Below are positions 4,755 through 50,790 of a stretch of 64,000 nt of DNA, in pieces. The stretch's first letter is position 1. Each line of letters opens with the position of its first letter. Position numbers and translations under genes: made by a program. The stretch lies in NCBI GenBank assembly GCA_028622995.1, contig JAJQJQ010000004.1, positions 6,758,001 to 6,822,000 of the forward strand, given 5' to 3'. The notes beneath the pieces were generated by a model. The model searched no databases, was not told where the DNA came from, and saw only the letters and a list, made by a program, of their open reading frames with translations. This stretch comes from Panagrolaimus kolymaensis (taxonomy: Eukaryota > Nematoda > Chromadorea > Rhabditida > Panagrolaimidae).

Positions 4755-4757
4755 TAA

Positions 4758-6490: not shown

Positions 6491-6549
6491 TCAAATAGCT
6501 CCATTTTGGAATCATTAAGTTTTCTTTTCTTTTTTCAAAACAAAAAAAA

Positions 6550-17100: not shown

Positions 17101-20100
17101 ATGAGAAAAATGAAAAGATCCTACGACAAAATTTTGTTAATTCAGATGGTCAAGGGTTTATATAAAATTATCAAACAAATTATTTCTCCCTTAAATTTTT
17201 TTCCAATGCAAAACCGCCACCTTCTTTAATCTATCAAAACAAAAACACACAAACACCCTTGCTTCCAACTAACTATGTTACTATTTTTGGCACACATGGC
17301 TTCAAAGAGTAACAAATAAGTTTAAGCTTTTCATTCTTTCTTTCTCGTGTTTCTTATGTTTTCTTTTTATTTATTTATTTTTTTTGCTTTGAAAAAAACA
17401 ACATTGAATTTTTGAAAAGAAAAACAAAGAGTAAAAAACAAAGTGAAAAATATTTTTGTTGCAAACTAACTAACTTTTATTTTTTATATTTCAAGTGTAA
17501 ATGCACCCATGTTTTTTTCTTTTTTCTTTTATCTTTAAAACATCAGATTTCTTTCGTTTGCTATTTTTATGTTTTGTTTTTTCATAAAAAAAGAAAGAGG
17601 AACGTGAAAAACAAAACAATCCTATCTATTTTTGTTTTAAAGTTTGGTTTGTTGAAACACTTTTTTTCTTCACAAAAACTTTCTTTCTTTTTTTTCGAAA
17701 CATGTAGTCAAACATATTTATTTTTTTTATGCATTGAGCGAGAGAGAGTCCATCCATCCTTAACTTTCTTCAGAAACATGCATAAACAAAATACACAAAC
17801 ATGCAATGCACTGGGTTCGTGTGCCTTTAACGAAGGGTCTTTGATCTTTAAAAAAAAATTTTAAAGCGTCATAGAACGAAAGAAAGATTTAAAAGTTATT
17901 AACACATTTTTCATTTTTATTTTTTGTTGAAATGATGATTTTGAGAATTGAAAACTGACTTAACTGAATCTTTTTCTAATTCATTAAAATAAAAATGTTT
18001 AATGTTTACAAATTATATATATATATTTTTTATTGGAGTGCTGCTTTTCTTTCAAAAAACTGGTTCAAAAAAAAAAAACAAAAGTGTTTGTGAAACTTTT
18101 GTTTCAAAACCCACATTTTTAGACATATGAAAACACATTTTTCCAATGTTATTTTTTTTGCGGTCACTAAAAGTTCACAGAATGTGAACTCTGAAATTAT
18201 ATAAAAAAAATAAACACTATTTTAACTGCAAACTTTTTTTTTGAGAAAAATAAAAAAATAATTTCATAGTCTCGTAAACTCTCTGTTCTTTGAATAAAAA
18301 AAAAGCAACAAAAAAGAGGGTTAAAAAACAAGTTTGCAACTAAATAAAAAATAAATAAATATCTTTATTTTTTATAAAAACTATAAATTTTCTGTAGCTT
18401 GAGCAGTTAACAAATTTTTTTCTTCTTATTTTTGTATCAAAAACAATTCCTTGTTTTTTTAAATTTAGTTTTGGCTTAAACGATTTTAGTATTAAAGAAA
18501 CAATTTTTAATACCTCTTTGATGAAACTGAAATAACCTAAAGGTGTTGATATTTTTCTTTTTTCTTTGGTTTATGTTTTTAATACTTAAAAAAAATAAGA
18601 AGCTAAAAATTATAGTATGAAAGACATTTTCTTTTATCTTGTTTTTTTTTGAAAAGTTTAGTTTTGCAACAAAAATTAAAAAAATAAATAAATAGAAAAT
18701 ATTTTTTTATTTTTAAAGGTTATTTTTAGGTATAAATTTATTTTTTTGTTCGAGAGATTATTGATAAAAAAATTTAAAAAAAACTGCAGTTGTTGAAGGA
18801 CGCTGGATATTTTTAAACAAGCAATTAGAACGACGAAAAAAGATTGATATGATAATAGCAGACGATGAAATAAACTGACAAAAAAGGCATACAAAATAAA
18901 TAAACTGTGTTAATATGTCCAAAAAGTTTCAAATTATTAAATTTAAAACAAAAAATTTCATAAAAAAACTGCATTGTTTGTTATAGTGGTGAAACAAGAA
19001 GAATGGTTTTAAACCTAAATAAAATTTTGCCAAAATTTCTTTGTTCTATCTTTTTTTTTAAACTGTCTCTGGTTAGTTGTTCTTTATGAATGATTCTTGA
19101 ATCATTATAAAAGACAAATTTTTTAAACTGAAATTTAATATCGGAAAAGGAATCCTTCCTATTATCTTTTAGATGGGATTGAAGCAAAAACTGAGCAACG
19201 CGAAAGAAATATTAAAATTTTTATTTCGCATTTTATATAATTTTTTAAACTGTAGTTTTCTTTATAACCATTTTAAAATTTTTTTAAACTGTTGGCCACA
19301 AGAAGAGATTCAAAAACTGTACTTTTACGAACTTTATGGCTTTCGTGCTTAGAAAATAAAAACACATTTTATTATAATCAAAATGGTGGATCGTGATTTT
19401 TCCAAATATTTTTTAATTTAATTTTCATTAAACTGTCGTTGGTTTTAACTGACGGAGCCAGAAAAACAAATTTTTGCTTGGGAAAAATTAAACTGTCAAG
19501 ACAAAATTTTCGATTTCTTACAATTTTTTATTTTCTATTTTTACAATGCCTAACGACGACATTTGTTCTGACTAGGGTTCCGATCCCCCCCCCCCCCCGA
19601 AATCAGAAAAAGTCGGGGAACGGGGAATCCCCGAAAATCGATTTTGACTCGGGGAATTCCCTGGCCGGGGAGAGCATCTGTCGGGGACGGGGAATCGGGG
19701 AATCCCCGAAAATGAAATTTTACCCGGGGAATTCCCCGAAAAATTTTTTAATGTTAATTTTTAAAGGAAATTTTTTTTCTTTTGTTTAAATAGTAGCATA
19801 TTTAGCCTTAATTAATAAGAATCTAGAGTTTGGGCTAAGAAGAACTCATGTTTTAAAGAAAATCAAAATTCTCCCCGATTTTTTCCCCGTCAAAAATAGG
19901 TCGGGGACGGGGACGGGGAATTTTCCGACGGGGAAAGCTGAGTCGGGGAATCCCCGGCCGGGGAACGATATTGGTCGGGGACGGGGAATCGGGGAGTTTC
20001 CCCGGCCCGGGGAATCGGGGATTTTCCCCGACTTCGGGGGGGGGGGGGGGGGGGGGAATCGGAACCCTAGTTCTGACCATGGTCAACCATGGTCAAAAAG

Positions 20101-23100
20101 CATGGCAAGCAATATGCGAAATGTTGCGAAGGTAAAAAATTTTCAAACTTCGAACTTTTTTTAGCAGTATTTTTTTTGATTTCAATATTGAATTTTTGTT
20201 CAAAAGAGTCTAAATCGATATATCAAATACATAAATAGGTAGTAAAAATAAGTTACTGTTAAAAAATAAATAAAAATTCATCAAAAAAATACTGTAAAAA
20301 AAGTTCAAAGTTTGAAAATTTTTTACCTTCGCAACATTTCGCATATTGCTTGCCATGCTTTTTGACCATGGTTGACCATGGTCAGAACAAATGTCGTCGT
20401 TAGGCATTGTAAAACTATATTCAATCTTATAATCCTTTTTTACGAATAATTTTTGTGAGCTTTCAACTTTACAGTAGTCATATTTATTTTTCTATGATGG
20501 AGGTCGTAATAAACATGTCTATTTTTTTATTTTTAGCAACTAAAAAACTGGCATATGCAATCCACATGAAAAAAATTTTAAATTTAATTTGTTACCTCTC
20601 TCTATTTTTAAAATATTTATGTCTCCCTCTTTTATTTTTGCTATTTTCAAAGAATAAACAGAGAAAAAAAAAGTTGTAAACAATAATAACTTTATTTTTT
20701 TTGCTAATATTTTTTCAAATAAAATATTTAAAAAATGTTAAAAGTAAGTTTTATGATTTTTAAATGCAAAAAAAACTTTGTTTATTAAATGGAGAAAAAA
20801 AACATTTGGAAAAACAAACATTGCTGAGGCACATGTGAGCGAGCCAATGGCATCATAGTTCATTCTCATGATATTTATAAACTGGAGTGAATGACCAAGT
20901 GCCATGGTGCGGCGATCATACTTTTTTTCCCAAAATAAAACTGTTGATGGTTGCCCAATGGCTATTTGCTTTTGTTCTTAGCAAATGAAAAAAAGTTTTT
21001 AGTAGTTTCAAAAAAAACTGCGTTTTATAATACTTTTTTTTTAAATTATAAAAAACTGAGTTTGTATAAAATAGCTATTTTGGTAGACATTAAAATGAAG
21101 GGAAAAAATAATGTTGTTATTATTGGTCAAAATTTGACGACGTCATCTTTTTGAATTAACAACAAACAAAAAATGAGAAAAACAAAAAAATAATTTTTAT
21201 GTAAGCATCAAGCGGAAAAAGTGTATAATAACAAATTTTTAAAAATAAATAAAGTTTCTTAAAGGTGCAAAAAAACTGAGGTAAAAGAAAATATATAATT
21301 AGGGGGAGCTGCAAAAAATAAATAAATAAATTTGCAAAAAATTTAAAGTTTAACTGCCAACTTTAAACATACCAATATTATTTGCATGATTTCGCAACAA
21401 AAAATTTACTGTATGGTTTAAACTGAGCCACTTCGCTTTTTCTTTCTTTTTTTTATATTTTAAACTGCTTATTATTACCATAAAACGCATGGATTTTTAA
21501 GATCTCTAGACAAAAACTGAATAAAATGTTGTTTTTAATTTCGTTAATTTCAAAATAAAAACTAAGCATAAAAGTGAGACATTTGGAGTTTATAGAATTT
21601 TTTTTAATAATAAACTGCATCGAAAATTCTCCTGTTTGGCCCACAAAAATTTTCTTAATTTTTTAAAATTTAAACTGTCATGACTCACGAGGAGATGAGA
21701 TGGCTATTCCATGTTAAAAAGCTTTTTGAAATATTTTTTAATTATAAACTGCATGTTGATTTCCTGAATTTTAACTCATAAATCTTTTTTAAATTTTTTT
21801 AAACATTTTTCTTACCAAAAAAACTGAACCATTCTTGCTTAAAAAAATTTTAAATATCGAATATAAACTGTGTTTCTAAATGGCGTTTGTCTTCGATCTC
21901 AAATTTTTGCATTCAAAATAATAATTATTTCTAAGGAACACATATTCTGTTTTAATGCTTCTCACCAAAAGTGATTTATATCTTTTTTTATTATTATTTC
22001 CAAGAATTAAAAGTCATCTTATTAACTTCCTAAAAGCTTCAGACATAGAGGATATATATATGACTGGACAAACTTATCATCTTTTTTTCATTTCTTTTTC
22101 TTCCTTATCTCTTTTTTATTAAAAAATGAATAAAATGTTTCTAAAGCCGTACAATCCTTTCTTTTTAGTGCACCAACCAAATCCCTGGAAGATTTCTAAA
22201 AAGAAAAAAAAAATAGCTACGAAAAACATTTATTTTTCACTGACGTCTTTTAGCCTTGCAATGTTTCTAGTCATCATAGCATAGAAGATAGACTCATTGA
22301 TGTTACATATATGGACAATAACTTAAGAGAAAAAAAGTAAGAAGAAAAAAAGTAAGAAGAAAAAAAGTAATAATTATTTCATTATTAATTTTTTTTATTT
22401 TCATTAATCAAAGAACAAAGCTTTATAAAAAATATTTGTAAGAGCTTAAGAAAACTGACATTTCATATTTATTTGGTAGAAGCAAAGAAAAACTGAGCAG
22501 GGCTCTCTGGCTTTGATTACGGTAACCTTTGCATAAAGGAAAAGAAAAAAAACTGACTTGATGAATAACTTCAAACTTTTAGGCAGAAAAATATTAATTT
22601 AAAAAAAAGAATATTTTGTTGTTGACTCACATTATTTTCTTTTTTTCGTTTAATTATGAGAGTTTCAGTAATTTTCCTATACAAAAAATTGAGAATAAAG
22701 TTTTCCCGTTTCTCATAGACAAAACTACAAAATAAATTTAAAAATTAAAACTGAGTAAGAAACATCATTAAGGAAGGAACACTTTTTTATATTTTTTATA
22801 AGCTTTTGATGGAATGAAGAGTACGAATCTCATATTGCATTGCACCTATAAGGAAGTTAAAAAAATAAATTAAAGAAACAGAAAAAAAGGAACGGATAGT
22901 AAAAACTGTAACGATCATACAAAATGATAAAAACAAAAATAAACTGTGTCGGAAAGAGGGGTTTAAGAAATTAAAAATATTCACTGTAAGATGTTTTTTC
23001 CATTTTTTGATAAGGATTTTTTAAAATCAAAAACTGATGTTGATCATTCATAAAAGTAATTTATAAAATCATTCAAAAAAACTGATGTTGTTGCTGTTAT

Positions 23101-26100
23101 TGTTTTTGTCTTTTGAATTTTAAACTGTTAAATAATTCTCATTACGGAATTAAACAAAGCATAATTTTTTTTTACAAAAATAACGAGAAAGCTGTGTTTC
23201 GGTATGTTTATAGGTGATGGTTTTTTACTTTTTTGGAAATTTAAAAAAATAGAAACTGTGCGAAAAATAAATCTGTTTTAAAGCGACATCAGGAATTTAC
23301 AAAGAAGATTCGAAAATTTTGAAAATAAAAAAACTGTATTGTTTAAATTAGATAGGAATTAAAAAACTTAAATAAAATAAAAATTAGCGGCGAATTTTGA
23401 AAATTTTTTTACTTTCGATTATTAATTATAAACTGTTTCATTAATTTTAATTCGAAAATACTTATCAACTGCGGAATTAAGTGGCTCATAAAATTTTTTA
23501 CAAAATTAAGGATAAAACTGTGGCGTTCCGTTAAAGTTGTTATTCAAATTATTTTTGGAAAAGTTTAGAAAATAAACTGGTTCTTCTTTAAATTTCTTTA
23601 ATAACATTATCCATAAGTCGGAAGAAGAATTTTTAAAGTATTGAAAAATATTAAACTGTATCTTTGATTTCCGGGTGGCACTTTTAAAAATTTTGGCAAA
23701 AAAACTGTAAAGATCATTATATTAGGGAAATCACATTTGGTATTTTAAACTGATTTGTATGAACAACAAATAACAAAATATTTGCAATAAACAAAAACTA
23801 TACTATTTTTTTTCTTTGCTCATGAAGGAAATTTTATTTCAAAAAGAAAACTGTGGATTAATTTCAATAGCATAAATTACGATTTTTTTTATATCATCTT
23901 GATTTTTTAAATTATAAAAACTGTCTATCTTTTTGATTTGGCGCTCCACATTTTTTGTTTCTAAATATACTGTGCTCTTTATTTGTAGCAAAAAATACTC
24001 AAAAGAAAAAAACTTAATTACCACTTATCAAATTTTTTTAACAGCTTTAATTTTGTTGTTTTTAATCATTAATTTTTAAAAAAACTGAATAAATATTTTT
24101 TTGGCGTTATTGTTTTTTGAAGCATAAATGTTCCTTTTTTAATTTTATTTTTCGATGTTATCATTCATTCATTTATTTTTCTTGAAAAAAATAATAAAAC
24201 AAAAAACAGCAAAATATTTTGTTATTTTTTTGCTGTTGCTGTTGCAAGTATTTGTTGCTGCTGTTACTCAACCTATTTTAAAGCCTCCTTCAAAGGTATG
24301 TGTGTCTCTAAGGTCAATGAAATGAAGCAAAGAAAAAATGAAAAACATTGAAAAAACAAAGAACCAAACAACTACTTTTCTCTTCTTTTTTTCTTATGAA
24401 AATAAATAAAACAAATGAGCTTTAAACTGTTAAAATAAATAATAATAAGTAGCTTTACTAAAGGTAACACTTTTTTTAAAGGTGTTAGTATTATAACTGC
24501 AAAAGGAGATAAATAAAAAAATGAAAATGATGTGGAAAGGGTTTTTCTTAAAACAAAAGACAGTAGTATTTTTTGAGGGACCAATAATGTCTGCTTGAAA
24601 ATTAATTTTAAGAAAATATTATTCTTGTATTTTTATTTAATAAACTGTTTTGTTTTTTGCCTCGAGGTAAAACCAATGATTTTTTTTTTAAAAAGTATAA
24701 ACTGCAAGAACAATGCCATGATTGTTAATAAAAATTAAACCTTTAGAATTTGGATTTTAAAAAACTGTATTTAGTTATAATTAAATTAAAACGAATTTCT
24801 CTTCAACTAGCATAAAAATTAAACTGTATCTTGGATGGGCTTCGTTTTTTATAAAAAAAACTTATTTGGGTATTAAAAATATAACTGTGATATATCGTTA
24901 GAGGGGAAATAATTTTTTATAATAAAACTGCGGAAGATGAACAGTGTGGTAACAGAAAATCAATCAAAAAGTCATGCCGTGATATTTTATTTTTTAATTT
25001 ATAGAAGAAAACTGTGAAGAGGATTTTAATGGTTTAAAATTAAAACTGGGCCATCAAAAGAGGGACTCATTAATCACAATAATACAAAAATTCAGAGCTA
25101 CAAAAATAAAAACTGCGATCGATTCTTCTTTGGAGGATAATTTTTATCATATACATTAATAAAACTGAGATTTCTGAATCAATTGCGCAAAACCGTTTCA
25201 AACCATAAAAATTCATTAAAATTTAAATAAATAAAAACTGAGGAGTCTTTTTAAGGGATTAAGTTTTAACTGGACAAAACAAAGAGTTTTTTAATCGTAT
25301 AAAAGATAATTCATACCCAAAACTCTAAAAAATTAACTGATTTGAGGTGCGCATTGGTGAGATAATTATTTTATCCTTCTTTAATAAAACTGAATTACAA
25401 AGCTGGATATCGTCAAATCGTCACAAACGAAAAAATCATATTTAAATTTGTAAGAAAAAATCTGTGAAAATGGTAAAATGACTTTAAATTAAAACTTTAC
25501 AAAATAAAGCGTTAAAAATTTCTTTTCAAAATCTTAAAAATATAACTGTGAAAATGTGCTGCGAAGGTTATTATTTTTTTATACTGTACTAATAAAACTG
25601 AATAAAACAAGTTAAGACCACAAGACAAGAAAATCTTAGATAAAATTATTTGAAATTTTTCAATAAAAAACTGCGAAGTTGACATGGCGACGGATCGTTA
25701 AAAACTGTGTCGTTTTTAAAATTATTCCTCAACAAATCATAGTTGAACAAGAAAAAATTAAAGACACAAAATAAGACGTTGTGTTAAAAGTTTCTTGCAT
25801 TTTTTTTAAAAACTTATCCTCATGGAAGAGAGAGAGGCCTAAAATTTCGAAAAACTTATCACTGGGATCCCTTAAAAGTTTTATATTTTGGAGAAGAAAA
25901 AAACTGGATTTTATTCAATCATGTTGCTCTGTCAATAATTGGCAGGTGATGTCGTTGGTTCATCGAAACAATTTTTAACTTAAAACTGAATATAAGGTAC
26001 CTCGATGGCCACTAAATTAAACTTCTAAATTTTATAGCCCGTTGATATTTTTTAATCAAAGCTATTATTATAAATATAAACTGTCTTAAAATCTTTTCAA

Positions 26101-35100: not shown

Positions 35101-36892
35101 TTTAAAGTCTATTAATTTAACTGACAACTCTAAAAAAATTGCATTTTTTTTTTGCGAATAATTATGGAAACAAAAATTGCTTTTATTGCTGTTTTTATAC
35201 ATTTTCCAAGTAAATAAATGAAAAAACTGTGATTGTTGTTTATTTTTTCGCAAAAAAATTTACAAAATTAAAAAAAAGATTCAAACTGACAGAAGCTTAA
35301 TATTTTAGAACAATTAAGGAAGACATAAATATTTCGAATATAAAACTGAGAACTACGAGAAGGTGTAACAAAGATTACTTCAGTGAGATAAAAAATATAA
35401 AAAATATGTATCATTCTTATAATTAAGGATGTAAATAAAAAAACTGCATGCGAATTTTAGCCGTGGAAAATTTTTTTTAAAAATTTTATAAAAACGATAT
35501 TCTATTTTAAGAAAAAAGACGTCGCTTTAAAACCCATATATTTAAATAAAATATTTTTAAACTGACGCAAAAAATAATTGCTGAAAAAGAAAAAAAAACT
35601 GTCGTTTAATAATTTTTGTAAAACTTTCATATAATATATTTTTATTCCCAAATAAATTAAATCAAAAAAACTGATAAACGAACCTCCTTTCATTCTTCCA
35701 TGTTCTCCATCTATTCCTCCACCACAAACATTAGTGGCGGCATTCATCATTTCAAAATCAAATAAAACTGAATTTTCTTCATTCGTATTGGAAGATGGAA
35801 AAATTATTGCCATAGCTGGTTTATTTGAAGCATTAAAAACTGAGATATGGCCATTGATTGCCTGGCTTTTTGGGAATTCATTAATTTTTTCTTCTTCAAC
35901 AATTTCTTCTAATTCATGCAATTGAGTATTTAAAACTCGACGCTTTTCAACCAAAATGCATTTCTGGCATGCGCATGAAGCAAACGCGCAATCACATTTA
36001 TGATTTTTTCTTGGCTCCAATAAGCCATGATTCAAGCATCGTTGACAATAATATATTCGTTTATTATTAATTGGAATTTGGCCTATAAAAAACAGCAAAA
36101 GTATGAATTTTTAAATAATTTATTTGGTTTATAATTTATAAAAGTAAAAAATTTGGAATTTTTAACTGAATCTTTTTGGATCAGCTATATTAAAACTGCA
36201 AAAATGTATTTAGTTTCAAGTTAGGTATAAAACTGTCTTATGGCAAAGGAATACGCTTTTTTAAAGAAATTTAGAAAACTGTGATAGGCTTACACGGAAT
36301 ATTTTGAAAAGGTAATATTTTAAGAATATTTTTTAATTTTAAACTGCTTCCGAAAAGTCTTTTCCGGGTTTTTCTAATTATTAATTTATTTTTATAAATA
36401 AAACTCAATAAAATAAATAAAACTGCTTTCCAAAACTAAAAAACCAATGTTCTATAAAAATGTCAAAATACGCACTATTTTTATGTAAGTTAAAACTGCC
36501 ATGTCGGACAATGCTATGAAATTAAAATAACTAAGCTTCTTTTTTTGCAATGTAGAATTTTATTAAATTATTTTTTAACTGTTGTGTGAGTAAAGTGAGA
36601 GGTTTTAAAACTGTCCCCAACTCGGGTTGTTTGATATGGTAAAGACCAATTGGAGTTATGGATTATATTACTTTCAAAAATGAAAATATAGCAAACAATT
36701 CTTAAATTAAACTGTTTTGTATGAGAATATTTACGGAAATGGATTAAAAATATTTTTAAAATTTAAATAAACTGTTGTTGCAACAAAAGTTGTTGAAATA
36801 AAGGATTTTAAAAACTTACCACTGATTTTATCAAGTTGCCCTGATACTGCGTTAAAAGCACTGAGGGTATTTATGGATTCGAATCCCAACAT
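12309..36892 (-). CDS. Two-DM-domain transcription factor (MAB-3/DMD-3-like), long form
   Basis: Exons in order are 36892-36820, 36082-35684, 13794-13516 and 13252-12309; all junctions are phase 1 and the sum is 564 residues. DM1 (from about residue 35) has YYCQRCLNHG, PRKNHKCDC, CACQKC and VEKRRVLN, very like the first DM domain of MAB-3. DM2 (about 160-208) has NCQKCGQHG, GHKRVCPFKDCNCPKC and ERQKLMADQIKIRRRQ. Both carry the Cys/His zinc ligands of DM DNA-binding modules. The C-terminal 300 residues are Ser/Asn/Ala/Pro-rich and probably a regulatory tail. MAB-3 and DMD-3 act in male differentiation; a sexual role here is inferred. The join from exon 2 (donor G|GTTCGT) across 21,889 bp to exon 3 is in frame but not proven. 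The alternative is two separate adjacent DM genes. Confidence 0.6.
14127..17900. other. First part of the giant DM intron, or promoter of the short form
   Basis: AT-rich, with GC-richer islands at about 14430-14515 (CGCGCAGG, AACGCCGCCG), 15670-15800 (CGTCGACGAAG, GCCGCAGCCGCTGG) and 16360-16440. These could be promoter or enhancer sequence of the short form. The AAACTG motif is rare here. No coding exon is recognised; open frames at 15906-16181 and 17412-17864 are Lys/Phe low-complexity. Confidence 0.4.
19539..20414. mobile_element. Fold-back (palindromic) element carrying a nested hAT element
   Basis: Long inverted arms begin TTTTACAATGCCTAACGACG at 19539 and end with the reverse complement at 20414. 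The arms include CCATGGTTGACCATGG-type and GCATGGCAAGCAATATGCG segments and run to about 20150 on the left and 20290 on the right. Removing the inner insertion and one target copy restores a continuous left arm. There is no coding capacity. The family is not identified, and the target duplication at the outer ends is unclear. Confidence 0.75.
19573..20069. mobile_element. hAT-type miniature element with long C and G homopolymers
   Basis: The 497-bp element has termini TAGGGTTCCGAT and ATCGGAACCCTA and perfect 8-bp direct repeats GTTCTGAC (19565-19572, 20070-20077). It is inserted in the left arm of the fold-back element. The interior is GGGGAATCCCCG-type GC-rich palindromic repeats, bounded by a run of 14 C near 19585 and 21 G near 20036. 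Termini and target size fit hAT. The G run could form quadruplex structures. No transposase is present. Confidence 0.85.
25081..25245. repeat. Array block duplicated at 48391-48562
   Basis: Both copies start AATACAAAAATTCA and end with A/T-rich AAATAAATAAAAACTGAG. Their AACTG motifs fall at matching ends while the sequence between them differs. Same orientation. Confidence 0.7.
26581..26848. repeat. Array block duplicated at 47545-47808
   Basis: Shared landmarks are TGTATGATTGCGAAGATTTT, TTTTAACTGGAACCGGAAAA and CTCAAAAAAAACTGTGTTAT, in the same order and orientation. All shared AACTG motifs are kept while intervening bases have diverged. The copies lie about 21 kb apart, in the intron and upstream of the DM gene. 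Confidence 0.8.
27446..27590. mobile_element. Palindromic element with CAACTCGCGAT repeats, 9-bp target duplication
   Basis: The 145-bp element begins GGCTGTAAACCAACTCGCG and ends CGCGAGTTGGTCATTTGCC. Internal copies of CAACTCGCGAT face each other. Flanks are AGTAATTCA at 27437-27445 and 27591-27599. A 9-bp duplication is typical of Mutator-like elements, so this may be a non-autonomous MULE. It is non-coding. Confidence 0.75.
30828..30903. other. GC-richer island inside the array, function unknown
   Basis: About 75 bp of clearly higher G+C than its surroundings contains a TGGTGG/CCACCA hairpin. It sits between normal AACTG units. On the minus strand it reads MSLENRCKSQRVFPMVAGSA and further, without clear splice sites. 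It could be a stray exon, an RNA or a transposon scrap. Confidence 0.35.
33449..33560. repeat. Array block duplicated nearby at 34013-34145
   Basis: Both copies share AAATAAACTGCG, TTGACAAGA, ATAATGA(A/G)GAATTAACTG and a following AAACTGC motif in the same order. Three AACTG motifs are conserved while the sequence between them has drifted. Confidence 0.7.
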
Positions 36893-39271: not shown

Positions 39272-41586
39272 CATGGGCAACCCAGACGATTCCAGACGAT
39301 TATCGTCTTTTATGTAGCATGTAGCGCAACGATTTTCGGTTATGTAGCGCAAAATTTGTGAAAAAAAATAAAAAAGAGAAAAAAAGGGCAGAAAAAGAGA
39401 AGAAAAAAAGAAGAAAAGGGAAAGAAAAAAAGGAAAAAAGAAGAGGAAGAGGATCAAAAAAGTAAGAAAGTAGGCTAAATACTAATTCTTGTTTTTTTAC
39501 TGAACGTTTTGGAAGCTATTAGTCGCAAAATTATAATTAGGTGAATTTTTAGCAATTAAAAGACTATAGTCATAAAATAATTTATTTACAAATACAATAG
39601 TCAATGCGGAGAAAAAAACAAATCAGGAATTTTAAACATAGCCAGTTCGCAAAATTAACTGTATTTACATGGGTCAATACACCATAAAGCAAGAAAATGT
39701 TCGCTCAATATAAATTTTGCTTTCAGCTATCAAGTAAGATATTGTTAACGCTTATATAACTAATTTTTATTATCGTAAGTGTTATTACTTATCATAGCGG
39801 CTTACTAAATGTCTCAGAAAATGATAAATGCATGTTAACCAATGTTCTTATTGATAACATTTTTTTAACCCAAATTTTGATAATATCATTCCTTCCACTG
39901 ATTTCTAAAGGCTTTAGAGCACCTTAAAGTAATCTATAATTTATAATCATTTCATTTTAATAATATAAAATAACAAAAGTTATTTTATCAAATGAGATTC
40001 ACAAAAAAAATAAAACTCTTTTATGTGAATATATTTTTTTAAATTTCTTTGCTTTTTATCGATTTGTTGATTGCAAAGCGAAAACAAAGAGTTAGCATAG
40101 AAGCAACATACTCACATATGAAAAGATAATTCAAATTAAGAAGTAGAGGATTTTGCTAAAATATTAGAATAATTTTTTTATATTTCGGAACTAGCAAAAG
40201 CTCAAAATACTCTTGAAAAATAAAACACTTAATTATTAATATAATTAGAACTATTAAAATCTTTAAAAAATCCTCTTTAATATTTGTAAATTCCCCATTC
40301 AGAATAGATGTCATAGTTATCAAAAAATAAAACAAAGTGTTGTAAAAAATCGGTGTTAGCTATAATTATTTCAGAATTAAGTTATTTGTAATGAATATAA
40401 GATGCCCAAATAAACAAAGTTTTGCAACTTGGTCGAAATAGGGCTTCTTTTTAAAAAGCTTACATATGGTATTTTGAATAAAACGCTTGACTTTGGAAAA
40501 CATCGTCAAAAAAATCTCACAAATGACATATTGTTTGTTTTGGATTTTTGCCTCACCATTTTGGGTCAGATGCGGGTTTCTCTTCTTTTAAACATTTTGT
40601 GTCAAAAAATTTTACTCTGGGAATAAATTCTAAATTTTGAGTCATTTTGAATTATTCGATTGGATTCTTACTATGAAAAAATTTTTAGAATTTTAAAGAG
40701 AAAAAACGTCTTTTTAAATCAGAAACTTTTCTGTGAGGGAGAATAGTAAAAATATTAAGTTTTTGAATGTGAAAAAGGGTGAGAGGATTTTTAAATAAAC
40801 ACATATTTCGACCAAGTTGAAAAATTATATTTATTTTGGCGCCTTATATCAAGGAATTAATTGCAAAAAAATTAAGCATATTTTTCTTGGAATCATAAAA
40901 GCTTTGATAAACAAACAAATAATTTGGAAACAGAGCTTTCTGGTTTTAAGTTTCGTGTTGTCGAGTTGATGCACACTGAAACTCAACTCGAAGAATTTCC
41001 GATGAACCGAAAGCTCGCGCTAGAATGCATAAATGCTTGAGAAGAAATAAAATTTTGACTCTTTAAAAATAACTATGATAGCGAAGTATCGAAAGGTGTT
41101 TTTTATATTATTTGACTCAAGTTATTAAATTCATTAAAATCAGAAACCCTTTAAAACTAAGAATTCAAAAATTATAAACTAATAAATAAATAAATAGTTT
41201 AGAAAAATAACTTGGGAAAACAAATTTTAAAATAAAGCGATGAAAATTTTTCTAAATCAAATCTATTAACTAATAATATCAAAAAAAAAGAAAATTAGAA
41301 CTATTTTTTATATTTGTCTTAAGAATTTGCCAAAAATTAAAGCTCAGAAAAGAAATTGAAAAAATAGTTAGAATCAAGGGTGCTCAAAGTAAAAAATCAA
41401 CTAATTTAAAATTGCTACATAGCTGGGCTGCATATCTTTCGTTTATATATATAAAAATTTTATTTTAAATAGAACTGGAAAGACCAAAAAATTATAAGAA
41501 AATCATCCAAAAAAACTACAGGGGGGACCCTTTGCTCGAATTATGTAGCGCAAATTTTCGAAATTTGTCGTCTGACCGTGCCCAAG
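39272..41586. mobile_element. 2.3-kb insertion interrupting the array, possible Tc1/mariner-like remnant
   Basis: The ends are CATGGGCA and TGCCCAAG, each flanked by TA. CAGACGA and TATGTAGCGCAAA recur near both ends. The AACTG array is almost absent across it (one instance near 39660) and resumes on both sides, so it looks inserted after the array formed. I see no transposase. The TIR match is short, so the class is uncertain. Confidence 0.5.
40425..40819. mobile_element. Smaller inverted-repeat element nested in the 2.3-kb insertion
   Basis: CAACTTGGTCGAAATA at 40425-40440 is matched by its exact reverse complement at 40804-40819. The 360 bp between them carry a short open frame without a recognisable domain. 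This suggests a further MITE-like insertion; target duplications were not resolved. Confidence 0.5.
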
Positions 41587-43180
41587 TATGAAATAAATTA
41601 AATATTTTTTAAAGGATTAAACTGTATTTATAAAAGAATAAAATTGGAATTAAAAAACTGTATTACATGTAAAAAGTTTCAAATCATTATACATCATACA
41701 TTCATTGAAAATCAAATGCTTCTTATTAAAGGTGCAACGAAAAAAAACTGTAGATTGGCAATAAAATTGCAAACTTTTTTAATTAATTACACAAATCTCT
41801 ATAAAACTGAAATAAATTTTTTTTTTTTGGAAAACTAAAAGCTGGATTCCATTAACTTTTCTTTAGCATAATTAACTGGCTTCTTCCATTTTATTCTTAA
41901 AAGAGGTACAAAAAAAACTGAATATCACGAATAGATTTATCCAAAATGCACAAATTTTTGGTTTCTTGGTTTATTTTTAAAATAAAAAAACTGATTTGAT
42001 GCCATGGTTTTGAAAGATTTATAAATAACTAAAAAAATTTACAAAACTGCATAGTCTATACCAGATGCAAGAATACAAGAACATTTTTATAATTTTTTAA
42101 AGACTCAAATAATATTATAATTTTAAAACTGGATTCCAAGATATATGAACTTCGTCTTTACTAAAGAAAAATAAATTAGTTACTAACATTAAAACTGATA
42201 ATAATAAATAAATACTGTAAAATATCAAAATTTTATTCTTTAATTATAACAATGATGAAAAAAGACATGTAAGAGGGGATGAATAAAAAGCGAAAGCAAT
42301 ACATTTATACAAAAAGAAAGTTAAAACTGTGCCGTCTTTAAAGATTTTGTCTAAAAATAAAACTGAATTATACCATATTTTTAAGCTCATAATTTCTTTG
42401 GAAGTAATAAACTTGGAGAATTTCTATCCTGTTCAGATAAATTCAAAAAAAACTGCATTTCTATTAAATTGAATAAAGTTAAGTAAAATAAAAAACTGTA
42501 TCTCGAAGATTTACGTTTGAACCAAAAACAACTATTCTATTTTTTTGGTATTTTTTTCTCTATAAAAATTTGTAGGACATATAAAGAGAAAATAAAAAGG
42601 GGGAATGTCAGTTCAATGAACTAACTTCAAGAAGGTGACGACGATAAAAGGAAATGGAAAAAAACAAATGTAACAAACATTTGATGATGATCAGCTGAGT
42701 TTTTGTGCTGTGCTTGCCGGTGCTGGCTGTTGTTGGTGGGTCAATCACCTTTCTTTCTTTTAAAGGAAAATAAAATTGACGACGTGGAAAGTAAAAAGTC
42801 AAAAACACTTTTTTAATGCAACTTTTTTTTGTTACAAATAATAAAAATAAAGTTCGTTTTTATTTTTGCAAAAAAAAGTGAAGAAAAAAATATTTGTTAC
42901 ACAAGGTTTTGAAACTGGGGCAGAACATTTGATTATTGTTGGGAAAAAAAATAAATTTAAAAAAAACTGAATTCAAACATAATTTTTAGGAAAAAAACTG
43001 CATTATTGTATCACTAGGAGAAAAAAATTTGCTTTCACTACATAAGTAAAAAAACTACCAAACATTTAAAACAAATAATTTTAAAAAAATAAAAAAAACT
43101 GGACGGAACATTTTTTCTTGAAAATCGGTTTAATAAATCGTAATTTAAATTTTAAATTAAAAACTGCATTTTAAATTTTT

Positions 43181-43305
43181 ATGTAATGTTTACCGAACGA
43201 TTGAATTAAGATAAAAAAAATTATAATTTGTTACTCTAATCAATAAATTTTGTTAAACTGTTTTATTATAAATCAAGAGTTATGTTCATTTTCCCAATAA
43301 GAAAT
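43181..43305. repeat. Array block duplicated at 49265-49392
   Basis: Shared landmarks are TTTACCGA(A/G)CGATT, AATTTTGTTAAACTGT, GTTATGTTCATT and CCCAATAAGAAATC, in the same order. The central AAACTGT is intact in both copies. Confidence 0.75.
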
Positions 43306-43744
43306 CAATAAAAACTGGCTAACTTTTTTTAAATCTTTATTCGAGCTTCAACAATATAAAGTTTCAAAGACATAAAAATGTGGAAGATTATGTTTTTTAA
43401 AGAAACTTATTATAATTAGCAAATTTTAATATATAGAAAATTGAGCAAAAAAATAAAAACTGAGTTTAGTGAAAATAGCGGTTTTAAATAAATTTAAAAC
43501 TTTTTTTGTAAACTGTTAGCTTTTTTCGGGGGATTATTTTATTAAATAATTCTGATTTTTTATTATACATATTATAAACTGCCACGATATGTATTAGAGA
43601 TAATTATAGAGGAAGAAAAATTTTCTATTCAAACCTATGCTTTAAAACTGAGATACGATGAAAACTTTGGTTTAAAAAAACTGAAAACATAAAAAGTTTG
43701 CTAAAAACAAAAAACTGCAAAAAAAAACAAACTTTTTCCGTTCA

Positions 43745-44415
43745 TGTTTGATTTTGAGTGAGGACCTCCTTCCTCATTGAAAAAGGAGGTTGTTGGTTGG
43801 TTGGTCACCATCAACAACAATCATCACTGAACTTTTTTCTTTCACTTCCCCAAATAAAAATTTTTTTTTTATCTTTTTTCTCTCTCACATTGCAACATTT
43901 TTTTGTTTTGTTTCCACTTTTTGCAGCATCAATAAAAAAATTTTGTTGTTGTGATCTCTGTCTTTTTCCTCGTTGTTTTCGGTTATTTTTTTAGTTCGAT
44001 GATTTTTTTGACAAAAAAAAGTTGAAAATTTAAGGGAAAAACATACACAAATAAAAAAAATGGAAGGAAATAAATTTGTTTTATCAAAAAAACAGAAACA
44101 AAAAAGTTTCTATTTTTTTACCATTTTTAGAGAAAAAAGAAAAAAGGACCCAGATTAATCGGTGGTGTAGCTTTAAAAAGAAGAACTCTAATCAACAAAA
44201 AAAATAATGTTTGGACAATGAAAAAATGGAAAAAAAAGTTTAAGGGAAGAAAAATCACTGTCATGTGAAATATTTAATAAGTCTGGAAAAAATAATGTTT
44301 CAAAAAATGAAACATATCATTTGCAAAAAAAATAAGGGCCTCCAAAAAAAGAATTGTAAAAAACAAAGCGATTAATAAATAAAAAAGTTTTTTTTGGGGG
44401 AGCGCAAAAATAAAA
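43745..44415. other. Motif-free island in the array
   Basis: No AACTG occurs for about 670 bp. The stretch holds GGACCTCCTTCCTC, an AGGAGG/CCTCCT inverted pair, and GT/CA-rich segments (TTGTTGGTTGGTTGGTCACC). Similar motif-free islands lie at about 24.1-24.4, 31.2-31.8, 32.6-33.1, 42.5-42.9 and 46.3-46.65 kb. They may be older intron or enhancer sequence between array blocks. Confidence 0.4.
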
Positions 44416-47400
44416 GGGAAAAACTGAAAAAGGAATAACATTTATTTTATGATTTTTGATTTTTTAAACTGCTATTTTTGAAACAATGATAATTTTAACT
44501 GTCTGTTATGGCGATGGTTATAAGTTAATTTTTTTTAAGTTGTAAACTGATCAAAATTGATTTCATCTTTGCAATAAAAAAAAGTGTAGTTTTTTGATGA
44601 TTCATGCTTTTTTTTTTTGGGGAATCAACGCTACAAATTCTTTGTAAAACTTTTATTCTTGTTAAACTGGATTAATAAACGAAACATTTTGATGAAAGAA
44701 AACAATAAACTGTGATGACAGATAAAACAAAACGCAAGTAAATAATATAGTGGAAAAAAGTTTAACTGTTGTTCGGGATTTTGCTTTTAAATAATTAAAT
44801 ATCAAGCTTTTTTTCGGGTATTAAAACTGAGTGCTTGTTTTTTCAGCAAATGTTAAATTTAAATTAAAACTGTTAAATATTCTTTTTTGAATGTCGTTTA
44901 ATTAGGTAAAAAAATATGAAAGGTAAAATTATTAGGAACACTTTTTTTAAACTGTGAGCTTGATTATTCGTGAAATATAGCGACAACAAAAAAAGAATTT
45001 AAAAGCTAATTTACGTTAATAAACATTTAAAAAAACTGATATTGTATGCCTTACTTTTGATATAAACTGTGTTGAGTGTTTGGTTATTGAAGTTAAGAAA
45101 GAAATAATTTACATAAATTTTAATTTAAACTGGAGATTGTCGTGGTTCGGAGCTTTTCAATTTAATGGAGGAAATAAAACTGAATAATTAATCGCTTTTG
45201 GGCATATTTGTTTTAAACTGAACAAACTGGTAATATCCAGGTTACATTGACATCAAAATAATATATGTAAACTGTACACTTCTAGGGATTATCGCATTTT
45301 AAAAAACTGAATTTTTTTTATTTCTTTTTAAACTGCATTCAGAAGATATTTTGCTGTTGTCGATCAGAAAACATAATATTTTTTGGTATAATATGATTTA
45401 GAAAAATTTGGAAATTTTTTAGAGGATATAATAAAAAAGTTAAAACTGGCTTTATCAAGTGCAGCATGGGACCAAACTCTAAAAATTAGAGTAAGTATCC
45501 GTGAGTTTTTGAAGTTATAAAAAGCACACGTGGTTGGAATTAAAAACAACTGTAAAATATCGTACAAAAAATCCAATGATTTTACTAATTTGTTTTTGTG
45601 AACTCTTTATTTTGTAAAAAATTTTTTAAACTGTAATAAAAATGCCAAAAAAATAATTATTAATAACTGAATTTTGAGTGAATGTATCACTGTTTAGGAT
45701 ATTTTTTTGTAAAAAAATGTAAAGAAAAATAAACTGAGGATGTAATATCAATAATTTTAACAATATTCAAATCACTGTAGATGGTTGTTACAATTCTAAA
45801 TTCGGCTTATATTTCGCGAATTTAAAAATTAAGTTAAATTTATAACTGTGTTCAAGTGCTCTATCGCCAAAAATAACTTTTAAATATACATAAAACAGAG
45901 TAAATTGAACAAACAAGGCAAATTTATACAAATTCAATAAAATAAAATTCAGTATTTAATTAAAACTGTTATATTATATGAATGTCGGATATGGGAATTT
46001 TAACGATTTTTTAAAAAGTATCTTCAAATTTTAATAATAAAAAACTGAAAAGCAAGAGTATAAAAAAAATTTAAAACTTTAAAGTTTCTCTTTTTTGATA
46101 ATTTTTAACTGCGTATTGAGTCTTAGGTATGGAAAACCAAAGACCACAAAATTTAATGAAGCACTTTTTCAATGCAAACTTTTAATAGCTAAAAATCCTT
46201 GCAATTTAAACAGTCCAATTTTCTATTTTTTTAATAAAATATGTTTTAAAATTCTTCATTTTTTAAACTGCGTCAAAAAAATCTTTGATTCGAATAAGTT
46301 TTTTAATTTTTTTTCCATGTTTTGATTCTTTTTTTTATTTAATGCATTTATTTGACATAAACAACTTTTTTTTATTTGTGTTTCAAAATAATAAAAACCT
46401 TTGAAACTTTTTCAACAACTTTTTTTTCTTTATTGGTGTTGCATTTTATTTTTTGTGTCGCGTTCGATTTTAGTCCAGCCATCATCGTTAACAAACAACA
46501 AAAAAAAACCCATCGTTCGAACTTTGTTCTTTTTTTGTTGTTGACGCATAAATAAAATAGGAATAACATGCGAAGCAAAGGGAGAAATGAAAAAAAAAAA
46601 TAGCAACAAAAAAACTTTAAAGTTTTGTTCGCAAAAAAGAAGGGATATATGTTTTTTTTTAATTAGGAAACTGTTTTTTTAATTTATCAGCAACTTTTCC
46701 ATGTTTCAAGAATAATTCGCGCCAAATTAATTATGGATTTAAATTTAACATCAAAAAAACATTTTTAAAAAATTGCTACTGTCCTTTTTTATTATTTTAT
46801 TCGCTTAAATAAAATTATCTTTAAATTTTGGTGGAAAGAAAAAACTGAGAACAGTGAGGCTAAAACAGATTTTTTTTGATAAAAACTTCGATAGGGACAA
46901 ATTAAAAAAAACTGTGGGGTCCATAATTGAGGATGCTAAAACTGGAGTTAAATTATCAATGGGCTAAATACAAAAATTTTTGAATAAAGAAAAATTTTCT
47001 TTTAAAAAGGCGTCAATGATTTAATATAGTTGAAATGCGTTTGAGTGATATATTTTTTGCCTTTAGTTAATAAAACTGCATTTTTAAAACTAAGAAGGAA
47101 AAATCAGGAAATTATAATTAAAGTTTTTTTGGAATTTTTCTTAAACTGGGGCGAGCATTTGGAGAAAGACTAAGAGCCTCACTGTGCTCTATTAAAAACT
47201 GTTAGCAAGAGGTTGAAGGTTCAACGAAAGAAGTTTTATTATTTTTTAAATAACTGCAAAAAGAAATCATGATCGAAAAAAATGTTAAATGTGTTATTGT
47301 TTCGCGTTTTGCTAATTGGGTATATAACTGTTTTTTATAAGTAAACTGTTGAAAGAATTTTGAATTGCTTATGTTTTTCACTTTAAAAAATTTTTAAATT

Positions 47401-50400
47401 TAAACTGTCATATTTATCGCAAAATTTTATATTTTTTAAATAGGCTTTTTAAAACCGTCGTTTTTGTTTCAAAATTTTTGAGAAAAAAAGTTGAAAAAAA
47501 AACTTTGCTTTTTTAACCATATTTTTTGGGTTGCAAAAACAAGGAAAAGAATAAAAAGGAAAAAAGGGCGAAACTGAAATAAACAAGAAATAATAATGTA
47601 TGATTGCGAAGATTTTTTTTCTTTGAAATTTATTTTAACTGGAACCGGAAAAAAAGTTGTTTATTATAAGGGATGGATGAGAAGAAACTTTGGGAAATAT
47701 AAGAAAAAAGACAAAACTGTAGAGTATGACATAGAGATATTAAAATTATTGAGATCTCAAAAAAAACTGTGTTATATTTATTTTCAACTTTAGATAACAA
47801 AAAACTGAAACAAATCTTACAACAATTTTTATAGAGGGAAAAGAAGGATGCAAACTGGGAAGAATAATGCAAAAAAACATTTGGGGTAAAAATAACTGAA
47901 TGAGTGAATGGATAAATGAAGATACATTTCATGCAGTTGCGATATTTTTAGTTTAACATAATGAAAATTAAAACTATGAAGCCACTTATTCGAAAAAATA
48001 GTTTTTCGTGTAATATCTGTTTTAATGCACAAAAAATTTAAGTAAAACTGAGATGCAATTTAACCATCGACGATACAATATTATATTTTTAAAGAAATAC
48101 CTTCTACAGATATTTGGTTTTATGAATTTTTAAACTGCATGAGAAGAGATCGTTTACCATCTTTTTGAACCTAATATTTCTTTGAAAAACTGACAATGAG
48201 TTGAATAATTTTTTTTATGAATTTTAGCAAAACTTCTTGACTAAAAAACTGTACCACCAACGTTAAGTTTGTTAAAAAAAATTTTTTTTAAATAAATAAA
48301 AAACTGCAGCCTTACTTCGTACGCTAAAATATGGGATTTTGATTTTTTATTAAAACTTGATTATTCGATGAAAGGTCTCTTTAATAAAAATAATACAAAA
48401 ATTCATAGCTTCAAAAATAAAAACTGACATCGAGTCTTGTTTCGAAAATACATATATTTTATTCAAAACAATTATGAAATTGGAGCAATGAGCTATCGAT
48501 AGAGCAAAATCTTTTCAAGGCAAAATTACTCATTAAAATTTCAAATAAATAAAAACTGAGAAGTTGGCTCACTTTAAGTGATTTTCATTTTTTAAATTAA
48601 AACTGAATCTAATAAATTCTTATTGTAAAAAGAATAATTTTCATCAATTAAACTGGATTTATTTAAATATGCAATGGGGCTATATATTTTTTACTATGTA
48701 ATTATAAAACTGCTCATTGATGACTGGCTCCTTTCAAAAACATAACAATAAATTATTTGGAATGTATCAGAATAAAAAACTGTAAACATCATATTTTTAG
48801 GTGATGGATTATGAAAACTGCAGCAAAAAAATGTTGCATTAAGAAAATCATTCTTGTAAGATAAAATAAAAGACAGCCACTAAGTTAGAGGAGTATCATT
48901 AATTACTTTCATTTTTTTTTTGAAAACTGGCTGAAGGGTTTAGCTGATTTTATATATAATATCTAATTCCGGAAAAAGGTTGACAAGGGAAAGAAAAAAA
49001 GTTAATATGCAACTTTTTTTTATAAAAACTGAAAAAAGAAATATTTGATATGGTTTTTTAAAGTTTAAAACTGAGTTGACGGTTTTTTGTTAAAAGTAAA
49101 TTGAACGAAAGCAGCGACACAAATAAAAAAATTTGAGTAAAAAATAACTGGATTACTTTAGCAAAAAACAAAATAAAACTGTACATCCTTATTTTTTTTG
49201 AAGTTCGGTATATAAAGCTATTTTTATTTAAAAAACTTTAAAAAACACCTCTTTTAATTTTTTGGGGAATATTTACCGAGCGATTCAATTAAGATTAAAA
49301 TTAATTCTTTTATTTAATAATTTTGTTAAACTGTATTATAATAAAGCATATGAAAGATACAAGTGTTATGTTCATTTCCCAATAAGAAATCGCAATATTT
49401 TTTAACTATAAACACTTTCATTTTTATTTTATTTTTAAACTGTTATTAGCTTTTGGAATTTTTATATCCGAAATTTAAATATTTTTTAACTGATAAGCCT
49501 TAGCAGTAGACACTTTGTTTCTCGCCGTAGCTTCAGAAAAATGACTCAATTTGGTAATTAAATTAAATTTAAAAAATTTTAAACATTAAAAACTTTAAAA
49601 CTTTCGTGGGGAGTAAATCAAGAAAAACTGTGGGGCTTTAGCGAAGAAGCTAAAAATAAAAGAAAATTTTTAATTATATATAAACACTGAGCACTTGTTT
49701 CAGGAAGTGTATTTGATAAATGTTCGATAACTTATAATTAGTTCTAAAAAATGGAACACCCATTTTCGCAAGCAGCAACGCCTTAAAACGTACAATAATA
49801 ATATTTGCTAAATATTATGATAATTAAAATAATAAACGTGAAACAAAATTTTTTATTGTTCAATAAAACTGGAACGACGATCGTATATTCATAAAAGAAA
49901 ACTGTAAAATTTATATTATTGCTTTAATTAATTATTTTTTTTTAAAACTGTATATTCCAATAAAAGGCTTTTTTACATAATTTCAGCCATTTGAGTAAAT
50001 TATTTTTTGTTTTTAACTGGAATTCGGCTAAGTTTGGTTTGAATCATCGGCATAGAAGATTTTTTTTTAAATTTAAAAAGAAACTGTTACATATCCAAAA
50101 TGCATGGTAGCAAAAACAAATTTTTTTGTTTAGTTTATTTTGTATAATTAAACTGAAAATTTAATATTTCAAATGTCTTATGATTTTTTTGTTTTCATAA
50201 AAAATTAAAACTGAATCACGTTAAAAATCTATTTTATTTTTCTGTTTATGAAAATAAAAAATTTAAACTGCACATTTTGTTGTTTCAACAAATTTTTGAT
50301 ATAAAAAAACTGCATTTGATCAAAATTGCTTATATCACAGCTGTCTGCCACTTTATTTTTTAACAAACGCAATTTATTGTCGAATGATTAAAAAAATTAA

Positions 50401-50790
50401 ATTAAACTTTTAACTGTATTCACCCGTTATATGGCCAAAAATAGCTTATAAATAAAACTGTGACAGGACACTGAAGGCGGCACAAAGTTGTTACAATTTA
50501 AAAAAAGTTTTAAATTTTTAAATAAAACTGTTCCATTCTTTCGAATAGCGAGATTTGGATGAATATTTCATTAATATTTCTTCTAAATTTATGTTTAAAA
50601 AAAATTTCACAATTCAATTTCAAGAAATAATAAAACTGAAATTCTGCATTTTTTGATATTTTTTTAACTGCGAACAAGCAACATCGTAGGCTAGAGCTCG
50701 ATGATGGAATTTAATGCTTTTCTTTTTTGTATGTCCAAGAAAAAAGGCTTTATTTCAATAATTAAATAATAAAAAAACTGTGTAAAAAAA

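What the first reader, a model, noticed from the sequence alone, without database searches (positions are those of the whole stretch)
18781..50780. A 32-kb, strand-biased array of AAACTG/CAGTTT motifs in and upstream of a DM-domain gene
Motifs of the form A/T-run plus AACTG recur roughly every 70 bp for 32 kb, almost all in one orientation, and start and stop sharply. My base-composition estimate predicts under 1 AACTG per kb; I count 13-14 per kb in two sampled kilobases. Units are otherwise unlike one another, so selection or a motif-dependent copying process is needed rather than simple satellite growth. I know of no described element of this form. Candidate roles are small-RNA promoters, a chromatin or transcription-through-intron signal, or binding sites for one factor.
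Basis: partly seen in the sequence, partly recalled or inferred. Interest (0 to 1): 0.92.

Follow-up and report, generated by a model that had tools for sequence, protein, structure and literature searches.

The report
Dense arrays of tiny RNA genes
A 32-kb stretch of a soil nematode genome looks like a row of about 330 back-to-back miniature genes, each a short fixed promoter word followed by its own ~22-letter variable message, resembling the genome-guarding small-RNA clusters of C. elegans although no gene for the Piwi protein those need was found here.

Summary
In detail: 333 AACTG against 9 CAGTT in 18525-50781; a first-order Markov null gives 40 and 19. The genome matches Panagrolaimus kolymaensis, a triploid clade IV nematode. 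The arrays are not tied to the DM gene: they recur elsewhere, spread over Mb-scale spans, in both orientations, an estimated ~45,000 motifs.

Each unit has one anatomy: ~25 bp AT-rich, (A/T)AACTG, then 20 nt of GC-richer, unique sequence ending at +24. In homeologous and duplicated copies these same 20 nt diverge faster than both flanks; other pentamers show no such dip.

Best reading: each unit is an autonomous small-RNA gene making a ~22-nt RNA from the U of AACUG. It works like C. elegans 21U-RNA loci, but lacks the Ruby motif and, as far as searched, a PIWI-clade Argonaute. It may be the genomic source of a class like the 21-22U RNAs of Strongyloides ratti (PMC9203780). No RNA data were available; transcription is inferred.

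The parts
18525..50780 (+). Unidirectional array of ~333 units, each = ~25 bp AT-rich + (A/T)AACTG + 20 nt variable body; predicted small-RNA genes transcribed on the + strand
   Evidence: 333 AACTG vs 9 CAGTT; GC step at +25; spacing exclusion
25086..25135 (+). Representative unit: AT-rich lead, AACTG at 25111-25115, predicted 22-nt RNA 25114-25135 beginning at the T of AACTG
   Evidence: sequence read; limits from the pooled profile; the RNA itself is inferred
35502..36110 (-). Open frame with a DM domain (Pfam PF00751) embedded in the array; its DM part is 97% identical in two homeologous copies on C18 and C40
13496..13810 (-). Open frame with a DM domain, left of the array; whether it belongs to the same gene as the one at 35502-36110 is unresolved
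12309..13313 (-). Open frame downstream of the left DM exon; best of three matches is a Panagrolaimus superbus protein
19491..20546 (.). Motif-free gap in the array: GC-rich insert with inverted-repeat arms, judged by eye
39657..41473 (.). Largest motif-free gap in the array; probable insert, judged by eye

Best explanation
The array is a cluster of several hundred autonomous small-RNA genes, part of a set of roughly 45,000 units in the triploid assembly (about 15,000 per haplotype, extrapolated). Shown here: each unit is an AT-rich ~25-bp lead, the strict word AACTG, and a 20-nt body with a sharp end at +24/+25, followed by AT-rich DNA. Between diverged copies the motif is kept more often than comparable words, and the body evolves faster than its flanks. 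Inferred: AT-rich DNA plus AACTG forms a minimal Pol II promoter/initiator. Transcription starts at the second A of AACTG. The higher-to-lower melting step at +25 pauses and ends Pol II, as described for Pristionchus and C. elegans piRNA loci (PMC6436959). Removal of 2 nt leaves a ~22-nt RNA beginning UG. An AGO- or WAGO-clade Argonaute loads it to silence transposons or other foreign RNA, in a lineage without PIWI. Bodies are free or favoured to diversify, so the arrays act as a shuffling repertoire of guides.
For: Strand bias and density. Strictness: W6-AACTG 193 vs 2, while the most strand-biased single-mismatch variant is AACTA, 13 vs 3. GC 0.303 in +5..+24 versus 0.220 in +25..+61 in 391 isolated units, change point at +25 in 876 of 1000 bootstraps. 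Around nine other words of the array (11-56 places each) GC falls at +25 in 3 and rises in 6. In 206 motifs isolated upstream, the 17 positions passing p = 0.001 of the 130 tested (-90..+39) all lie between -10 and +24. Melting profile of 204 units. 2.7% of 734 spacings are 27 bp or less, versus 24% expected. The profile recurs in minus-strand arrays and homeologs (55 units each) but not around 95 AACTG outside arrays. Clustering: strict triples 50 vs 0 in the reversed-pattern control, over Mb-scale spans of several of 14 contigs; looser pattern 4432 vs 159. Body diverges faster in 214 aligned pairs (110 of 134 non-tied; Wilcoxon p = 1.7e-15). At A/T sites 0.260 versus 0.161 in the 123 pairs outside one recent duplicate. 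Anchored on the 59 other permutations of the letters there is no dip: 0.107 versus 0.104, 105 pairs. The contrast shrinks when the partner lost the motif: 0.633 versus 0.703, n=52. Motif kept more than same-composition pentamers in homeologs: 18/21 vs 38/63, 13/18 vs 14/46, 7/8 vs 7/26. S. ratti 21-22Us are 5'U, clustered and AT-rich upstream (PMC9203780; abstract, sections 8, 9, 17 and passages).
Against: No RNA, TSS or chromatin data: transcription, 5' end, length and Argonaute are all inferred. PMC4323106 reports no 5'U-biased small RNAs outside clade V and cites absence of piRNAs in Panagrellus redivivus (passages). No upstream motif was found for S. ratti 21-22Us. C. elegans lacks long unidirectional 21U clusters (PMC3597512 passage), so the one-orientation blocks here need another reason. 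Faster body evolution does not clearly exceed four-fold sites of the DM exon, which differ at 5/39, 9/38 and 8/39, so diversifying selection is not proven. At G/C sites the excess is small (0.406 vs 0.338). In the recent duplicate L042/L043 taken alone the mismatches are clumped (circular shift p = 0.02), the upstream 25 bp also exceed the spacer (p = 0.017), and the motif is not kept better than its flanks predict (11 of 15; 10.6 expected; other words 18/31). The aligned pairs come from 22 alignments and are not independent. The pentamer control anchors lie in better conserved stretches (flank identity 0.85-0.87 versus 0.78), and alignments of AT-rich flanks can inflate flank identity. The melting step is modest.
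Confidence: 0.73

Rival explanations
1. AACTG is a processing site rather than a promoter: each block is transcribed as one long unidirectional precursor and cut before UG to release ~22-nt RNAs, as in long piRNA clusters of other animals.
For: All C3 places that one search lists, 6.777-7.173 Mb, are on +, and reverse motifs in the window array are below expectation (9 vs 19). Such unidirectionality is natural for a long precursor.
Against: The AT-rich lead of ~25 bp and the melting drop at +25 match what is described for stand-alone nematode piRNA units (PMC6436959 passages). The array is interrupted by a coding exon of opposite strand and by probable inserts.
Confidence: 0.13
2. The motif is a binding site for a chromatin or chromosome-domain factor (dosage compensation, pairing, licensing of germline genes), with no RNA product.
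For: Strict triples seen on 14 contigs only, strict short motif.
Against: Does not predict a one-sided 20-nt window with a sharp edge in both composition and divergence, nor fixed orientation, nor the shortage of spacings below 28 bp. No 10-bp A/T periodicity, so not PATC-like.
Confidence: 0.05
3. The RNA is made from the other strand, with CAGTT as a Ruby-like upstream element (CAGTTTTA and CTGTTTCA agree at 6 of 8 places).
For: Resemblance of letters only.
Against: No position in -90..-26, where such a minus-strand RNA would lie, passes p = 0.001 (206 isolated motifs). The distinct window abuts the G of AACTG on the other side.
Confidence: 0.04
4. A decayed satellite or mobile element family left a repeated AACTG word with no present function.
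For: Old local duplications exist in the arrays.
Against: 725 of 725 22-mers unique; no tandem repeat longer than 93 bp in the window; in homeologs the motif is kept while the neighbouring body diverges faster, the reverse of decay.
Confidence: 0.03

Closest known systems
C. elegans type I 21U-RNA (piRNA) gene clusters on chromosome IV
   Same: Thousands of tiny units spread over Mb-scale spans, in introns and intergenic DNA; AT-rich lead; unique ~21-22-nt body with 5'U (here predicted); melting drop at the 3' end; similar number per haploid genome (more than 15,000 in C. elegans, PMC3597512 passage; ~15,000 extrapolated here)
   Different: No Ruby motif ~40 nt upstream; the fixed word touches the predicted 5' end; no PIWI-clade Argonaute found; very dense (median spacing 67 bp) and unidirectional over long blocks
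Strongyloides ratti 21-22U piRNA-like RNAs (PMC9203780)
   Same: Clade IV, PIWI reported absent, 5'U 21-22 nt, AT-rich upstream, two clusters of 1 and 2.7 Mb, same-strand overlap
   Different: No motif found upstream by its authors; loci overlap heavily and partly derive from transposons; whether the loci carry AACTG could not be checked here
Periodic An/Tn clusters (PATCs) of C. elegans germline introns (recalled)
   Same: A/T-run-rich DNA in introns
   Different: No 10-bp periodicity in the array

Membership tests
C. elegans-type 21U-RNA (piRNA) genes | Ruby motif CTGTTTCA upstream | tested here: not met
   CTGTTTC 3 and GAAACAG 2 in rows 18001-51000; no positional signal upstream of -25 passing p = 0.001
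C. elegans-type 21U-RNA (piRNA) genes | PIWI-clade Argonaute (PRG-1) encoded in the genome | tested here: not met
   PF02171 finds 143 matches, but a PIWI-clade bait gives at best 54 bits, 31%, and that best family is AGO-clade (AGO2 100 bits, PIWIL1 60). Active-site signatures found in 17 of the 30 loci fetched all end HP; 13 loci gave none. Piwi_N none, but without a positive control. A very divergent PIWI split by introns could be missed.
C. elegans-type 21U-RNA (piRNA) genes | Mb-scale clustering | tested here: met
   strict triples on 14 contigs, over Mb-scale spans of several; the strict pattern is insensitive, it has no hit in the window's own array
C. elegans-type 21U-RNA (piRNA) genes | High-to-low melting step at the end of the unit | tested here: met
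   modest in size
C. elegans-type 21U-RNA (piRNA) genes | Expressed 21-nt RNA with 5'U, bound by PIWI | not testable with these tools
   no RNA data held; an invariant T (by construction of the anchor) opens a 22-nt stretch ending at the change point
S. ratti 21-22U class | PIWI absent, Mb clusters, AT-rich upstream | tested here: met
S. ratti 21-22U class | No conserved motif at the loci, as reported | tested here: not met
   AACTG is strict here; the S. ratti loci themselves could not be examined
S. ratti 21-22U class | Expressed 21-22-nt RNA, 5'U, 5' monophosphate | not testable with these tools
   no RNA data
PATC | 10-bp A/T periodicity | tested here: not met
   band power 0.92 and 1.01 of background in two array parts; 0.85 and 0.94 outside
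Satellite or minisatellite | Head-to-tail copies of one unit | tested here: not met
   20 short rows, longest 93 bp; 725 of 725 22-mers unique
Known structured RNA families (Rfam 15) | Covariance-model match | tested here: not met
   0 matches in the window at gathering score

The most novel reading that the evidence does not exclude
A PIWI-independent counterpart of the piRNA system: about 15,000 miniature genes per haplotype in a clade IV nematode, driven by an initiator word AACTG rather than the Ruby motif and read by a non-PIWI Argonaute. The 20-nt guide bodies are hypervariable between fixed promoters and terminators, so the domain behaves as a rapidly renewed repertoire of guides, and it would supply the missing promoter logic of the 21-22U RNAs seen in Strongyloides.
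Probability: 0.5. Interest if true: 0.93.

Novelty: new variant of a known kind. Interest (0 to 1): 0.86.

Why it matters
How nematodes outside clade V control transposons after losing PIWI is an open question. These arrays give a genomic address, a motif, a predicted 5' end and a length, so the question can be tested in one small-RNA library from a culturable species. If confirmed, piRNA-like gene arrays either arose again without PIWI or outlived it with a new Argonaute and promoter. The body/flank contrast would also make guide diversification measurable across copies of the same array.

Tried and rejected
Motif as plain satellite: rejected. PATC: rejected, no periodicity. Pol III units: unlikely, TTTT occurs in 32% of 721 bodies and is not depleted against shuffles (21%). 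Rfam families: none in the window. Minus-strand Ruby-like reading: no signal. A role specific to the DM gene: rejected by the spread elsewhere. 12-mer matches of bodies to the Argonaute loci: 513 antisense, 536 sense, uninformative. As an anchor for divergence the reverse word CAGTT gave one pair only, uninformative.

The first divergence test, on the recent duplicate L042/L043, looked strong by Fisher (p = 1.5e-6 against spacer) but its mismatches are clumped (circular shift p = 0.02), so I relied on the wider set.

A second map of the domains (pattern TAAACTG x3) did not complete, so domain limits and orientation blocks rest. One search lists only its first ~100 places (one on C1, one on C2, the rest on C3 up to 7.17 Mb). 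One search lists all its 50 but is insensitive. Contigs without a strict hit are therefore not shown to be free of arrays, C1 and C2 excepted.

Literature, by search listing: AAACTG, nematode, small RNA: 4 papers, none opened; 20 of 817 papers listed, each of the 20 with 0 occurrences of AACTG; papers further down were not seen; Panagrolaimus, small RNA, Argonaute: 2 papers, unrelated by title; Panagrolaimus, piRNA: 4, unrelated by title. No described AACTG array was seen in these searches; that is not proof that none is in print. PMC10676819 was seen in passages.

Full report
WHERE IT IS. The window is G000:C3:6758001-6822000 of a 265.8-Mb genome in 807 contigs. The protein coded at 12309-13313 has its best match, of three, in Panagrolaimus superbus (53% identity over 83%). 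The published P. kolymaensis assembly has 266 Mb in 856 contigs, and its paper names 49 mitochondrial contigs (passages of PMC10374039); 856 minus 49 is 807. I therefore take the organism to be P. kolymaensis, a triploid parthenogenetic nematode; this is inference from those numbers. That Panagrolaimus belongs to clade IV is recalled (PMC4323106 places Panagrellus there).

THE OBSERVATION. AACTG occurs 333 times and its reverse complement 9 times in 18525-50781; a first-order Markov null gives 40.3 (sd 6.4, maximum 60 in 200) and 18.7. Preceded by six A/T the counts are 193 and 2, while single-mismatch variants are nearly symmetric (most biased AACTA, 13 and 3). Elsewhere in the window and in 38 non-array loci there are about 0.5-0.9 per kb. 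The array surrounds a minus-strand DM-domain frame (35502-36110), has another to its left (13496-13810), and ends before the next open frame at 51276.

GENOME-WIDE. Three AAACTG spaced by 45-74 bases occur 4432 times against 159 for the same pattern read backwards. A stricter TAAAACTG triple gives 50 against 0, on 14 contigs: C3, C5, C18, C20, C23, C25, C33, C40, C42, C55, C81, C104, C214, C550, 28 forward and 22 reverse. Its hits span Mb on several of them (C3 7.85-9.87, C5 0.25-2.47, C18 0.40-2.74, C42 0.18-2.06 Mb). The strict pattern has no hit in the window's own array, so its silence on other contigs is weak; C1 and C2, however, have only one loose hit each. Calibrated on five array stretches (70 loose triples per 739 motifs), the loose count suggests about 45,000 motifs in the assembly, about 15,000 per haplotype; that is an extrapolation assuming equal density. 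All C3 places that one search lists, 6.777-7.173 Mb, are in one orientation; strict hits at 7.85-9.15 Mb are reversed, and those at 9.36 and 9.87 Mb forward again.

ANATOMY OF A UNIT. Aligned on AACTG, 593 AAACTG units show AT-rich DNA from about -25, then raised GC to +24, then a drop. In 391 isolated units GC is 0.303 in +5..+24 and 0.220 after; the best change point is +25 in 876 of 1000 bootstraps. Around nine other words of the array GC falls at +25 in three and rises in six. In 206 motifs isolated upstream, 17 of 130 positions pass p = 0.001, all between -10 and +24. Spacings of 27 bp or less are 2.7% of 734, against 24% if random. All 725 22-mers taken from the T of AACTG are different. 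The same profile appears in minus-strand arrays (55 units) and in homeologous arrays (55 units), but not around 95 AACTG outside arrays. Counting from the T at +3 to the edge at +24 gives 22 nt; to +23, 21 nt.

EVOLUTION. The DM exon has two homeologs, C18 and C40, 97% identical over the aligned ~230 bases, and the arrays are conserved there in the same orientation relative to the exon. I aligned homeologous and paralogous array copies: 214 unit pairs from 22 alignments, not independent lineages, 91 of them from one 97% duplicate. Identity is 0.85-0.90 upstream, falls to 0.78-0.81 over +5..+25 and returns to 0.85-0.88 from +26; the body is less conserved than the flanks in 110 of 134 non-tied pairs, Wilcoxon p = 1.7e-15. 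A smaller, separately aligned set gave 36 of 44. Without the duplicate (123 pairs), A/T sites differ at 0.260 in the body and 0.161 in flanks, G/C sites at 0.406 and 0.338. Other permutations of the five letters used as anchors show no dip (105 pairs, 0.107 versus 0.104 at A/T sites), though they lie in better conserved stretches. Where the partner has lost AACTG the contrast shrinks but remains (52 pairs, 0.633 versus 0.703). AACTG is kept more often than same-composition words beside equally well aligned upstream flanks in the homeologs: 18/21 versus 38/63 (C18-C40), 13/18 versus 14/46 (C3-C18), 7/8 versus 7/26 (C3-C40); in the duplicate L042/L043 it is not (11/15 versus 18/31, 10.6 expected from flanks). 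So two independent measures, composition and divergence, mark the same 20-nt body, and the homeologs show constraint on the motif. Body divergence is not shown to exceed the neutral rate: four-fold sites of the exon differ at 5/39, 9/38 and 8/39, so relaxed bodies between constrained flanks, or transcription-linked mutation, remain possible.

WHAT MACHINERY IS THERE. The Piwi domain (PF02171) has 143 matches, many Argonautes. A PIWI-clade bait (recalled PRG-1-like sequence; 222 bits to Siwi and 97 to AGO2 in the PDB) reaches at most 54 bits and 31% identity in the genome, and that best family is closer to AGO2 (100 bits) than to PIWIL1 (60 bits). Active-site signatures were found in 17 of the 30 fetched loci and are all of the HP type. 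Piwi_N gave nothing, but its control did not ring either. The genome is searched exon by exon, so a very divergent PIWI could be missed. The result agrees with the published loss of PIWI in clade IV (PMC4323106 Table 1, passages; PMC6436959 passages).

HOW IT MOST LIKELY WORKS. C. elegans 21U-RNA genes are autonomous units of an 8-nt core motif, ~40-nt spacer and 21-nt body (PMC3597512 passages); transcription starts 2 nt before the mature RNA and a melting drop at the precursor's 3' end marks Pol II pausing (PMC6436959 passages). The units here have the same logic compressed: AT-rich lead, word, body, modest melting drop. With the start at the second A of AACTG, removal of two nucleotides would give 5'-UG-N20. 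S. ratti, another clade IV worm without PIWI, makes 5'U 21-22-nt monophosphate RNAs from two large X-linked clusters with AT-rich upstream DNA and no Ruby motif (PMC9203780; abstract, sections 8, 9 and 17 and passages read). The arrays may be the genomic form of that class in Panagrolaimus. Against this, no upstream motif was found in S. ratti, no 5'U-biased class was detected outside clade V in PMC4323106, and Panagrellus was reported without piRNAs (cited there). High expression of S. ratti 21-22Us was seen in one adult stage, so absence in one library is not decisive; that is my inference.

VERDICT. It is best explained as an array of PIWI-independent, piRNA-like small-RNA genes with a new core motif and fast-evolving bodies: 0.73 for autonomous units, 0.13 more for processing from a long precursor; the exact 5' end and the Argonaute are less certain. 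It is not a member of the Ruby-motif piRNA family, since two defining features were tested and not met; it works like one.

Noticed in passing
window 27-8506 (+): Tandem genes coding small secreted-looking C-type lectin proteins (the first matched Pfam Lectin_C; the others judged by eye from the translations).
   Followed up: partly
window 19491-20546: GC-rich insert with poly-C/poly-G tracts and inverted-repeat arms interrupting the array; looks like a mobile element.
   Followed up: partly
window 39657-41473: Largest motif-free stretch inside the array, with the word CAACTTGGTCGAAATA repeated in inverted orientation; probable insert.
   Followed up: no
L042 and L043 (C3:7143001-7153000 and 7158001-7168000): A ~10-kb recent tandem duplication of an array, 99% identical over most of its length but much more diverged in its first ~1.5 kb.
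   Followed up: partly
L074, L075, L076: The homeologs are a mosaic: left of the DM exon C3 and C18 share most, right of it C18 and C40 are closest, suggesting recombination or conversion between pseudohaplotypes.
   Followed up: no
G000:C7:2367401-2378876 and G000:C1:9570895-9579405: A large Argonaute repertoire with several Piwi-domain matches lying close together (three on C7, two on C1); candidates for the partner of these RNAs.
   Followed up: partly
window 13496-13810 and 35502-36110: Two DM-domain frames 22 kb apart on the same strand; a related protein (P0002) has the left one only, so they may be two genes.
   Followed up: partly
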